Virus record (IMG/VR): IMGVR_UViG_3300012039_000012 | Span: 1-47,977 of that record | Strand: one strand, 5' to 3' | DNA from: a virus | Length of the DNA: 47,977 bases | Part shown: piece after piece, positions 3,040 through 34,441 of the stretch | How the letters are laid out: each line of letters starts with the position of its first letter | Numbering within the stretch: position 1 is the stretch's first letter | The notes under the pieces: model-generated | The model's input: the letters and a program-made list of their open reading frames with translations, nothing else | The model's database searches: none | Told to the model about the DNA's origin: nothing | Program-made: the position numbers and the translations under genes

Positions 3040-3296
3040 GGCTCGAAGACGCTGACCTGCACCTTCTTCCCGACGAGCGCCTTCAGGTTCGGGTAGAGCG
3101 GGCTGCGGATCGGAGTCGCGAGAATCAGGTCCTTCGCGCCGACGTCCTCGGCGTTGACCAGCTCGAAATAGCCGCCCTCGGCGTCGGCGCCGCCGAGATG
3201 CCCGACCACGTGGACGCCGCCGTCGGCCGTTACGCCCTTCGGCGTAACGGTTACGCCGATCAGCGTAGCGAGCAGGGCGCGGCGCGTGACGTTCAT
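3036..3296 (-). CDS. Small exported protein
   Basis: An 86-residue protein. MNVTRRALLATLIGVTVTPKG at the N-terminus combines a twin Arg with a short hydrophobic core and looks like a secretion signal, possibly Tat-like or a lipid-free Sec signal. The mature part (GGVHVVGHLGGADAEGG onward) is beta-rich, without cysteines. The ATG at 3296 overlaps the upstream TGA. Its function is not recognised. The nearby genes are also small and unknown. Confidence 0.6.
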   Translation of the reverse strand: MNVTRRALLATLIGVTVTPKGVTADGGVHVVGHLGGADAEGGYFELVNAEDVGAKDLILATPIRSPLYPNLKALVGKKVQVSVFEP

Positions 3297-3466
3297 CGTC
3301 TGCTCCTCAGTGCCGGGTGCGACTTGTTCGTGGGCGCCCACGCGACGACCTTCCCGGTGTCGCCGATCCGGTAGGCGATCCAGCACAGGCCGCAGACGAC
3401 CCACCCGTAGTCGAGCCGCTCGTGGGCGCCTCGGTGCCCGCAGGACGGGCACGCGTGCTGCGGCAC
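3293..3466 (-). CDS. Small zinc-ribbon protein, 57 residues
   Basis: It starts at GTG (3466) and ends at a TGA overlapping the ATG of the exported protein. It has CPSC at residues 6-9 and CGLC at 25-28, a classic short ribbon spacing, followed by a basic C-terminus. The sequence MPQHACPSCGHRGAHERL looks like a genuine zinc-ribbon start. Function unknown; one of about sixteen such small Cys-pair proteins in the window. Confidence 0.6.
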   Translation of the reverse strand: MPQHACPSCGHRGAHERLDYGWVVCGLCWIAYRIGDTGKVVAWAPTNKSHPALRSRR

Positions 3467-3469
3467 GGC

Positions 3470-3790
3470 CTACGTCTCGCCCTTGCCGTTTGCGCGCTCC
3501 TCGCGGTAGAGCCACCAGTTCTTCCGCCGGCGCGCGCGGATGGTCCGCGTCGCGGCGCGCTGCGACGGGATCGGGCTCGGCGTGTGCGTGCACCAGTCGC
3601 TGCGCTCGACGGCGACCACGACGGCGCCGCGCGCGAGCGCGACCGCGACGCAGTCCTGCCCGTCGGCGGTCGTCTCGATGCACGACGGTGACGCCTCGTC
3701 GCCGTCGTTGTAGAGCGGGTTCGGCGTGTCAGGCCACAGGACGAGCGCGTAGCGCGCGTCGTCCCGGCGCGGCGCGTCTGCTGCTGCCAT
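3470..3790 (-). CDS. Hypothetical protein
   Basis: A 106-residue protein with an acidic N-terminal half and a strongly basic C-terminal segment (RTIRARRRKNWWLYREERANGKG). Its stop is four bases from the next GTG start. ORF length, neighbour spacing and codon use like that of adjacent genes support it. No motif is recognised. The pattern GQDCVAVALARGAVVVAVERSD is beta-hairpin-like. Confidence 0.6.
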   Translation of the reverse strand: MAAADAPRRDDARYALVLWPDTPNPLYNDGDEASPSCIETTADGQDCVAVALARGAVVVAVERSDWCTHTPSPIPSQRAATRTIRARRRKNWWLYREERANGKGET

Positions 3791-28331: not shown

Positions 28332-28853
28332 TCAGGCGTCAGCATTATCGTTGCCTCCGTATAGCCACCCGAGCCACGACTTCGGCGCCTTCTTGACGCC
28401 GACGACGACGCGCAGCGCCGCGCCTGGCGCGACCGGCTTGCGCCGCAGCGCCATGCCCGCCTCATCCGGCGTCCGCGCGCCCTTGCGGCGGTTGCAGTCG
28501 AAGCAGGCCGTGACGATGTTCGTCCAGTCCTTGCGCCCGCCCTGCGACTCCGGCACGACGTGGTCGAACGTCAGGTCGCCCTCGCCGCCGCAGTACTGGC
28601 ACTCGTGGTTGTCCCGCGCGTAGATGTTCGCGCGCGTGAACGGCATCCGCTCGATCCGGCGGCGCGTGCGGACGAACCGCAGGAGCCGGACGATCGACGG
28701 CAGCTTGAACGAGAACGAGACCGCGCGCACGGTGACGTCGTGCTCGTCGATGATCTCGACCTTGCCCTGCGCCCAGAGCGTCATCGCCCGCTGCCACGGC
28801 ACGACCGTGACGGGCTCGAAGGTCGCGTTCAGGAGAAGGGTCTGCGCGGTCAT
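28332..28853 (-). CDS. HNH endonuclease
   Basis: A 173-residue HNH nuclease. The N-terminus TLLLNATFEPVTVVPWQRAM is typical of the family, followed by CQYCGGEGDLTFDHVVPESQGG, a zinc CxxC then the D-H of the catalytic HNH, and CFDCNRRKG with N. Phage HNH enzymes cut near cos or act as homing nucleases. The ATG at 28853 overlaps the upstream TGA. It is placed in the tRNA region, so a mobile homing origin is possible but no intron is seen. Confidence 0.9.
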   Translation of the reverse strand: MTAQTLLLNATFEPVTVVPWQRAMTLWAQGKVEIIDEHDVTVRAVSFSFKLPSIVRLLRFVRTRRRIERMPFTRANIYARDNHECQYCGGEGDLTFDHVVPESQGGRKDWTNIVTACFDCNRRKGARTPDEAGMALRRKPVAPGAALRVVVGVKKAPKSWLGWLYGGNDNADA

Positions 28854-30632: not shown

Positions 30633-30638
30633 ATATGG

Positions 30639-30713
30639 TCACGCCGGCAGGAATCGAACCTGCGTCCTCTCGCTTAGAAGGCGAGCGCGTCGATCCGTCT
30701 GCGCTACGGCGTG
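30639..30713 (-). tRNA. tRNA-Arg(TCT)
   Basis: Acceptor CACGCCG/CGGCGTG, anticodon loop CTTCTAA on TCGC/GCGA, T loop TTCGATT, encoded CCA. The permuted tRNA-like element abuts its 5' end. Confidence 0.94.
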
Positions 30714-30788
30714 ATGTGTCCGGCGCTCTGCCCTAAGCTACGCCCACGTCTGGGCGGCGGACTTGGATGAACCGCGTCTCCGGACTCT
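30714..30788 (-). other. tRNA-like element with halves in inverted order
   Basis: Read 5' to 3' on the minus strand, a tRNA 3' half comes first: anticodon-stem strand TCCGG, a T-arm-like GCGGTTCATCCAAGTCCGC, and acceptor strand CGCCCA. A 4-base linker follows, then a 5' half: TGGGCG acceptor, TA, D arm GCTTAGGGCAGAGC and anticodon-stem strand CCGGA. All four cloverleaf stems can form if the ends are joined. The T arm carries a 4-base insertion, and no CCA is encoded in the usual place. It may be a circularly permuted tRNA gene or the relic of a tandem duplication. Confidence 0.55.
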
Positions 30789-30791
30789 TGG

Positions 30792-30862
30792 TGCTCGCGG
30801 CCGGACTCGAACCGGCGACGGCCGGCTTCGGAGACCAGCGTCTGCAGTCCCGCAGCGCGAGC
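30792..30862 (-). tRNA. tRNA-Arg(CCG)
   Basis: Acceptor GCTCGCG/CGCGAGC, anticodon loop CTCCGAA on a stem with two G-T pairs, T loop TTCGAGT, encoded CCA. Confidence 0.92.
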
Positions 30863-30870
30863 GGAGTTGG

Positions 30871-31575: not shown

Positions 31576-31609
31576 ATGCCTCTACGTGTGCAGTTGTCAA
31601 AGAGCGTGG

Positions 31610-31678
31610 AGCCGCGTGTCGGAATCGAACCGACCACGCCGCGCCTACAATGCGCAGCTGCGCGTCAGCGCTCGCGGC
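31610..31678 (-). tRNA. tRNA-Thr(TGT)
   Basis: Acceptor GCCGCGA/ACGCGGC with one A-A mismatch, anticodon loop ATTGTAG on TGCGC/GCGCG, T arm GTCGG-TTCGATT-CCGAC, encoded CCA. Confidence 0.88.
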
Positions 31679-31927: not shown

Positions 31928-31940
31928 GCGTAAAGTTTGG

Positions 31941-32013
31941 TTGCGGGGAGGGGACTCGAACCCCCAGCCTCCGGGTTATGAGCCCGGCGCTCTACCAATT
32001 GCGCTACCCCGCG
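31941..32013 (-). tRNA. Initiator tRNA-fMet(CAT)
   Basis: The acceptor opens with a C1-A72 mismatch (CGCGGGG against CCCCGCA), and the CAT loop CTCATAA sits on a stem ending in three G-C pairs (CCGGG/CCCGG), the two marks of bacterial initiator tRNA. T loop TTCGAGT, encoded CCA. It is the first tRNA after promoter P2. Confidence 0.95.
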
Positions 32014-34090: not shown

Positions 34091-34441
34091 CTACTCGATG
34101 CGCTCCCAGCCGTGCGCGGTGCGCGCCTCGACGCGAATCTTCTCCGGCGTCATCTCCTCCTCGACGCGCTGCTCGAGCGTCTTGCCGGTCATTAGCTCGG
34201 ACGTCACGCGACGATGCCAGGCCTTAAACACCCGGCTCGCGACCATGCGCCGCCACGCGAGCCGCTTGTTCGTGTGCTGGCTGCGCTCGTCGCGCGCCTC
34301 GCCGACGGCGCCGGACGCGCGGTGCACGATGCGCACGCCGCTCGCCGTCTTGTTCTGGTGCTGCCCGCCAGGCCCGCCAGAGGCGAACGTCTGGACGTCG
34401 CAGTCGTCGATCGCCACGGAGAACAGGAGTCGCTTCGTCAT
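34091..34441 (-). CDS. GGQ release-factor-like peptidyl-tRNA hydrolase
   Basis: A 116-residue protein carrying the release factor catalytic loop [18 protein letters not shown] (GGQ near residues 25-27), then [18 protein letters not shown] and a basic C-terminal helix. It lacks the stop-codon recognition domains of RF1/RF2 and is about the size of ArfB/YaeJ-type ribosome rescue factors, but its C-terminal WERIE end differs from ArfB's basic tail. It sits between tRNA genes and may rescue stalled ribosomes or help takeover of translation. Confidence 0.85.

What the first reader, a model, noticed from the sequence alone, without database searches (positions are those of the whole stretch)
30714..30788. 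Circularly permuted tRNA-like element
Between two intact tRNA genes the minus strand carries a tRNA 3' half followed by a 5' half. The acceptor strands (CGCCCA/TGGGCG) face each other across four bases, the anticodon-stem strands TCCGG and CCGGA are perfect complements at the outer ends, and D- and T-arm sequences are recognisable. Permuted tRNA genes are known from algae and archaea; I know of no established case in phages. If the ends were joined, bases next to the junction could read CAT. The T arm has a 4-base insertion, so it may be a relic of a tandem duplication.
Basis: partly seen in the sequence, partly recalled or inferred. Interest (0 to 1): 0.72.

Follow-up and report, generated by a model that had tools for sequence, protein, structure and literature searches.

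The report
Permuted tRNA mimic in phage array
The element is a real tRNA-like fold with its two halves in swapped order and no anticodon; it resembles the tRNA-mimic part of bacterial Y RNAs, looks slightly decayed in this phage, and turns out to be one of dozens of such elements sitting unnoticed among phage tRNA genes.

Summary
On the minus strand, 30788-30714 folds as a circularly permuted cloverleaf: anticodon-stem 3' strand, T arm, acceptor hairpin closed by GACG, D arm, anticodon-stem 5' strand. Only 2 of 20,000 shuffles form both helices. An independent contig of the same phage carries it unchanged.

It is not a decoding tRNA split like those of algae or archaea. It has no anticodon arm, the would-be position 33 is A, the T loop has 11 bases, and the CAT is just the leader before the next tRNA's first base.

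Scans of IMG/VR show that the layout recurs: in two sets of loci, 26 of 108 and 32 of 69 neighbouring 3'-half/5'-half pairs match, against 0.1 and 1.2 expected. Some carriers are cultured mycobacteriophages, where stems co-vary at one conserved site. The same order defines the tRNA-mimic module of bacterial Y RNA (YrlA), which in Bixzunavirus lies beside a Ro60 gene.

Best reading: a YrlA-type tRNA-mimic module without the Ro60-binding stem, partly degenerate here. Strict YrlA membership fails: no basal stem, no Ro60 gene in about 62 kb, low model score. A duplication relic remains possible. Twelve other elements encode complete tRNAs in permuted order, and these are the more surprising lead.

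The parts
30714..30788 (-). whole permuted tRNA-like element (5' end at 30788)
   Evidence: fold; shuffles; identical in a second contig
30780..30785 (-). GTCCGG, 3' strand of the anticodon-stem-position (closing) helix, preceded by AGA
   Evidence: pairs with 30718-30723
30757..30775 (-). T arm GCGG-TTCATCCAAGT-CCGC: 4-bp stem, 11-nt loop (4 extra bases)
   Evidence: ARAGORN accepts the joined halves only without the 4 extra bases
30751..30756 (-). CGCCCA, acceptor-stem 3' strand
   Evidence: pairs with 30741-30746
30747..30750 (-). GACG, four-base loop capping the acceptor helix
   Evidence: sequence. Other elements have UUCG or GNRA caps
30741..30746 (-). TGGGCG, acceptor-stem 5' strand
30725..30738 (-). 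D arm GCTTAGGGCAGAGC
   Evidence: matches the permuted model R1 at 28.7 bits, (model not specific)
30718..30723 (-). CCGGAC, 5' strand of the closing helix
30714..30717 (-). ACAT tail, directly before base 1 of tRNA-Arg(TCT); leader-like, not an anticodon
   Evidence: comparison of tails
30636..30713 (-). downstream neighbour tRNA-Arg(TCT)
30790..30863 (-). upstream neighbour, tRNA-Arg(CCG)-like, parsed by eye
   Evidence: sequence; not called or 3

Best explanation
The element is a tRNA-mimic module of the YrlA (bacterial Y RNA) type embedded in a phage tRNA array. Shown: T arm, then a loop-capped acceptor hairpin, then D arm, closed by a helix at the anticodon-stem position, with no anticodon and no free acceptor end. 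Inferred: as the array transcript is cut (3' maturation of the upstream tRNA; RNase P at base 1 of tRNA-Arg(TCT)), the roughly 75-nt piece is released as a compact tRNA-like RNA that cannot be charged or decode. It could occupy elbow-binding tRNA enzymes or nucleases, or host Ro60/PNPase, as YrlA does. In this phage the basal Ro60-binding stem is missing and the T loop is broken, so this copy is probably a stripped and partly decayed member rather than a fully working one.
For: Permuted cloverleaf fold, 2 of 20,000 shuffles. The same layout recurs: 26 of 108 adjacent 3'-half/5'-half pairs score >=20 against 0.1 expected; 32 of 69 in new loci have matching acceptors against 1.2 expected; T-arm-blind count 34 against 6.0. 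Members share a short linker, often a stable tetraloop (cUUCGg, GNRA), and no anticodon; several, like the window, begin GA(G) right after the previous tRNA. At one site in cluster M mycobacteriophages (MrMagoo, Aziz, Rey, Reindeer) T, acceptor and closing stems change with compensation and the element is cleanly absent in Bongo. The order equals RF02553 positions 23-87 (alignment), and review PMC8394870 describes YrlA as D, T and acceptor arms on a basal stem. A permuted element lies just upstream of Ro60 in FrayBell, and a YrlA-model hit lies beside Ro60 in G021.
Against: The YrlA model gives the window element 23.7 bits (gathering score 69), below ordinary tandem-tRNA junctions in the same window (30.4-32.4), so the score does not discriminate, and cmscan of 30700-30800 does not report YrlA. 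No TROVE/Ro60 gene in G000 or G001. No basal helix: leader and trailer are neighbouring tRNAs. T loop is 11 nt. Expression is unknown. The phage scans were targeted at truncated tRNAs, so they give no frequency.
Confidence: 0.58

Rival explanations
1. Relic without function: a tRNA was duplicated in tandem (or a nested tRNA-in-tRNA unit was rearranged) and the outer halves were lost, leaving 3' half and 5' half side by side.
For: Broken T loop, 4-bp T stem, no encoded CCA. Nested tRNAs (a complete tRNA inside another tRNA's anticodon loop) exist in phage arrays, e.g. L023, and a rearranged nested unit would look permuted. L305 looks like an upstream 3' half left beside an intact copy of the same tRNA.
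Against: Two deletions would have to end in the same anticodon loop and exactly at both neighbours. The layout recurs in many arrays with intact T loops and stable acceptor caps, and co-varies in cluster M phages.
Confidence: 0.28
2. Functional permuted gene for elongator tRNA-Met: ends sealed by an RNA ligase, acceptor opened by RNase P, CCA added.
For: The only CAT tRNA called by ARAGORN in the window looks like an initiator (31938-32013, C1xA72, three G-C pairs), and the bases next to the junction read CAT. Ends liberated by neighbour processing would suit a phage RNA ligase.
Against: Position 33 is A, nine bases lie between the 5-bp stems, the T loop has 11 bases, and no complete anticodon arm can be assembled. 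RNA ligase families PF09414 and PF09511 give no hit in G000 or G001; across large contigs ligase presence does not separate carriers from controls (8 of 12 against 7 of 15). The set also lacks tRNAs for UCN serine codons, so a missing isoacceptor is not telling.
Confidence: 0.06
3. Spacer or processing aid: the module only keeps two neighbouring tRNAs apart and supplies a leader for RNase P.
For: Its ends coincide with the neighbours' processing sites; tails of such elements mostly end in T before the next tRNA.
Against: Most tRNAs in this array sit 1-10 bases apart without any such module; a spacer would not need conserved D and T arms.
Confidence: 0.08

Closest known systems
YrlA, bacterial Y RNA with a tRNA-like module (RF02553; Salmonella structure PDB 6CU1 as cited in PMC8394870)
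   Same: Same order of arms: closing helix, T arm, capped acceptor hairpin, D arm, closing helix; no anticodon; an RNA that looks like tRNA without being one (alignment).
   Different: No basal Ro60-binding helix, no Ro60 gene in the known 62 kb, broken T loop, sits inside a tRNA array, model score far below gathering.
Circularly permuted tRNA genes of red and green algae and archaea (PMC3978253, PMC3218864)
   Same: 3' half precedes 5' half; acceptor strands joined by a short linker.
   Different: Those carry a full anticodon arm and a bulge-helix-bulge at the ends and mature through a circle; none of this is found here.
Complete permuted tRNAs found here in other phages (Mycobacterium phage FrayBell tRNA-Ala(TGC), Ruegeria phage RpAliso tRNA-Ile(GAT), L104, L225, L029, L192)
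   Same: Same permuted order and linker position.
   Different: They have a full anticodon arm split after position 28 or 29, and several have a paired leader and trailer.
Two-piece (permuted) tmRNA
   Same: Permuted order around a tRNA-like domain.
   Different: No tag-encoding region; D arm is of ordinary tRNA type. Compared from memory only.

Membership tests
YrlA / bacterial Y RNA | tRNA-like module in the order T arm, capped acceptor hairpin, D arm, on a closing helix | tested here: met
YrlA / bacterial Y RNA | basal helix from paired 5' and 3' flanks (Ro60-binding stem) | tested here: not met
   flanks are tRNA genes; best leader/trailer match is 6 bp inside a tRNA acceptor stem
YrlA / bacterial Y RNA | score above the Rfam gathering threshold | tested here: not met
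   23.7 bits against 69
YrlA / bacterial Y RNA | Ro60 (TROVE, PF05731) gene nearby | tested here: not met
   none in G000 or G001; the genome may be incomplete
YrlA / bacterial Y RNA | T and D loops modified by tRNA enzymes (TruB, DusA) | not testable with these tools
   needs RNA; the 11-nt T loop makes TruB use doubtful
Circularly permuted tRNA gene (algae, archaea) | complete anticodon arm once the halves are joined | tested here: not met
   window arm: none; ARAGORN finds no tRNA in the joined halves
Circularly permuted tRNA gene (algae, archaea) | bulge-helix-bulge motif at the ends | tested here: inconclusive
   none seen by eye in the flanks; no motif program was run
Circularly permuted tRNA gene (algae, archaea) | circular RNA intermediate and charged product | not testable with these tools
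   needs RNA from infected cells
Array-embedded permuted tRNA-like elements described here (class 1) | acceptor complementarity across a short linker, located between intact tRNAs, no anticodon | tested here: met
   compare
Array-embedded permuted tRNA-like elements described here (class 1) | normal 7-nt T loop | tested here: not met
   11-nt loop; nearly all other members have TTCRA and a 7-nt loop

The most novel reading that the evidence does not exclude
Phages carry two linked kinds of permuted tRNA gene: complete ones with an anticodon arm split after position 28 or 29 that could be converted into working tRNAs, and anticodon-less, Ro60-independent tRNA mimics inside tRNA arrays, of which the window holds one, serving as decoys against tRNA-cutting host defences or as tethers for host RNA-decay proteins.
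Probability: 0.25. Interest if true: 0.82.

Novelty: new variant of a known kind. Interest (0 to 1): 0.57.

Why it matters
YrlA-type tRNA mimics are known mainly as partners of Ro60. Finding the same permuted module repeatedly inside phage tRNA arrays, mostly with no Ro60 gene found, and co-varying in cultured mycobacteriophages, suggests a use independent of phage-encoded Ro60, for instance against tRNA-cutting defences. ARAGORN does not report such elements and the cultured phages' records do not annotate them. Complete permuted tRNAs, including one conserved in about 190 Bixzunavirus-type genomes beside a Ro60 gene, make a direct laboratory test possible in M. smegmatis.

Tried and rejected
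RNA ligase as partner (PF09414, PF09511, RtcB): no difference between carriers and controls, 8 of 12 against 7 of 15; RtcB was not searched in the window phage. Covariance model R1 of permuted elements: not specific, because it also matches the junction of any two ordinary tandem tRNAs; its pair counts are partly circular since pairing was a selection criterion. Close relatives through portal and TerL: only the same phage and a short fragment of it, plus one 35% TerL relative without tRNAs. Exact acceptor pattern: no second case. Rfam on ten carrier loci: no family at gathering score explains the flanks. Literature: no held paper describes permuted tRNA genes in phages; the 2014 YrlA paper is not held. 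My first idea that neighbour processing plus ligation makes a working tRNA-Met was dropped when the anticodon-less members and the YrlA match appeared. One call by a guessed DOI returned an unrelated paper, and one PDB search had no bearing.

Full report
What is there. The window is an IMG/VR virus record of 47,977 bases, GC-rich, with a terminase of the Terminase_6 type and ARAGORN calls for more than 30 tRNA genes on the minus strand. Between tRNA-Arg(TCT) at 30636-30713 and a tRNA-Arg(CCG)-like gene at 30790-30863 lie 75 bases that read, on the minus strand, AGA-GTCCGG-AGAC-GCGG-TTCATCCAAGT-CCGC-CGCCCA-GACG-TGGGCG-TA-GCTTAGGGCAGAGC-G-CCGGAC-ACAT. The predicted fold is a permuted cloverleaf. 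A simple test (outer helix of at least 6 Watson-Crick pairs plus inner hairpin of at least 6) is met by 2 of 20,000 dinucleotide shuffles. A second, independently assembled contig of the same phage has the identical element.

Not a decoding tRNA. When the halves are joined, ARAGORN finds no tRNA unless the four extra T-loop bases are left out, and then it reads an odd loop ACATAGA. Position 33 is A, nine bases lie between the 5-bp stems, and no complete anticodon arm can be assembled. The only CAT tRNA that ARAGORN calls in the window looks like an initiator, so an elongator tRNA-Met is missing, but tRNAs for UCN serine codons are missing too, so the gap is weak evidence. The second contig adds about 14 kb beyond the window with no further credible tRNA.

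The layout recurs in phages. Three pattern scans of IMG/VR for truncated or close-set tRNA arms gave about 320 loci. After masking ARAGORN tRNAs, 26 of 108 adjacent T-arm-to-D-arm pairs in the first set reach a pairing score of 20, against 0.115 expected from re-pairing across loci, maximum 1. In the 98 new loci of the third scan, 32 of 69 have complementary acceptor strands, against 1.2 expected, maximum 5. A count that ignores the T arm gives 34 against 6.0, and nearly all true cases have a normal T loop. The scans were aimed at such arrangements, so these numbers show that the elements are real, not how common they are.

Two kinds. Kind 1, like the window, is squeezed between tRNAs or chained one after another (L273, L280, L320, L050, L097); it has no anticodon, and its acceptor hairpin is often capped by a stable tetraloop such as cUUCGg (L267), GGAA (L026, L269), GTAA (L204, L250) or GAAA (L246, L319). 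Kind 2 has a complete anticodon arm split after position 28 or 29; 12 of 62 elements qualify, against 3.25 expected, and ARAGORN reads the joined halves as ordinary tRNAs for Pro, Thr, Asn, Ile, Ala and Ser. Several kind-2 elements have a leader and trailer that pair (for example AGGATGGT/ACCATCCT in L104, GGGGAGGCAG/CTGCCTCCCC in FrayBell); helices of at least 7 bp occur in 19 of 62 elements against 7 expected.

Cultured phages. Mycobacterium phage FrayBell has a permuted tRNA-Ala(TGC) at about 127,560-127,640, and 190 of the records matched hold most of the same 301 bases. Ruegeria phage RpAliso has a permuted tRNA-Ile(GAT) at about 3,380-3,470. The cluster M phages MrMagoo, Aziz, Rey and Reindeer carry a kind-1 element right after tRNA-Asn. 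Between them the closing stem changes from GCGGG/CCCGC to GTGGA/TCCAC, the T stem from GGTGG/CCACC to GCCGG/CCGGC and GTCGG/CCGAC, and the acceptor from AGTGAGC/GCTCGCT to CACGGGT/ACCCGTG; Reindeer's acceptor keeps five of seven pairs. Bongo, PegLeg and SirSheldon lack the element cleanly. Compensated change at one locus is the best evidence that kind 1 is under selection, though it comes from other phages, not from the window.

Identification. A permissive Rfam search showed why the layout looked familiar: RF02553 (YrlA, Y RNA-like) positions 23-87 have exactly this order, closing helix, T arm, capped acceptor hairpin, D arm (alignment; first seen). A review describes YrlA as D, T and acceptor arms on a basal stem that binds the Ro60 orthologue Rsr, with PNPase bound by the tRNA-like domain (PMC8394870); Hughes et al. 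suggest the tRNA-like domain might inhibit an anticodon nuclease (PMC7790460). In FrayBell the permuted tRNA lies just upstream of a TROVE/Ro60 gene (127,897-128,928), and in G021 a YrlA-model match lies beside one; only 3 of 50 records searched have TROVE, and the window phage does not. That phages carry Y RNAs near Ro60 was, from memory, reported by Chen et al. 2014 (RNA 20:1715), which is not in the library.

How it most likely works. Shown: sequence, predicted fold, recurrence and, in relatives of kind 1, compensated change. Inferred: release by processing of the neighbouring tRNAs, and action as an uncharged tRNA mimic for elbow-binding proteins, tRNA nucleases, or host Ro60/PNPase. For the window copy the 11-nt T loop would weaken the D-T elbow, so I think it is partly decayed.

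Verdict. It is not filed as a YrlA member, because the basal stem, the Ro60 neighbour and the score were tested and not met; it is filed as a YrlA-like, array-embedded tRNA mimic, probably degenerate. A relic of duplication is the main rival. The wider set, above all the complete permuted tRNAs of kind 2, deserves more attention than the window element itself.

Noticed in passing
L371 (Mycobacterium phage FrayBell MK359317, about 127,560-127,640): Complete permuted tRNA-Ala(TGC) with a 10-bp leader/trailer helix directly upstream of a Ro60 (TROVE) gene; 190 phage records hold most of the same region.
   Followed up: partly
L366 (Ruegeria phage RpAliso OR257569, about 3,380-3,470): Complete permuted tRNA-Ile(GAT), perfect 7-bp acceptor, no gene annotated there; the YrlA model also hits a second place at 3242-3307.
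   Followed up: partly
L023 4979-5132; also L070, L127, L199 (two places): Nested tRNAs: inserts of 83-89 nt in the anticodon loop of another tRNA (a complete tRNA-Phe inside a tRNA-Thr(TGT)-like gene in L023).
   Followed up: partly
L246 6981-7055 and orthologues in Rey, Aziz, Reindeer: Anticodon-less permuted element after tRNA-Asn in cluster M mycobacteriophages; a GOLLD RNA lies about 350 bases downstream (L246 7397-7814).
   Followed up: yes
window 31607-31678 (-): tRNA-Thr(TGT)-like gene missed by ARAGORN and by Rfam at gathering score.
   Followed up: no
window 34091-34441 (-): RF-1 domain protein (release-factor or ribosome-rescue type) inside the tRNA array; an HNH endonuclease lies at 28332-28853.
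   Followed up: no
L199 / G021 129,563-130,707: YrlA-model match next to a TROVE gene in a phage that also has nested tRNAs.
   Followed up: no
L204 (- strand), about 2,290-2,600 of the reverse complement: Order Phe, permuted element, Pro, permuted element, Ala within one array: two permuted elements alternating with intact tRNAs.
   Followed up: partly
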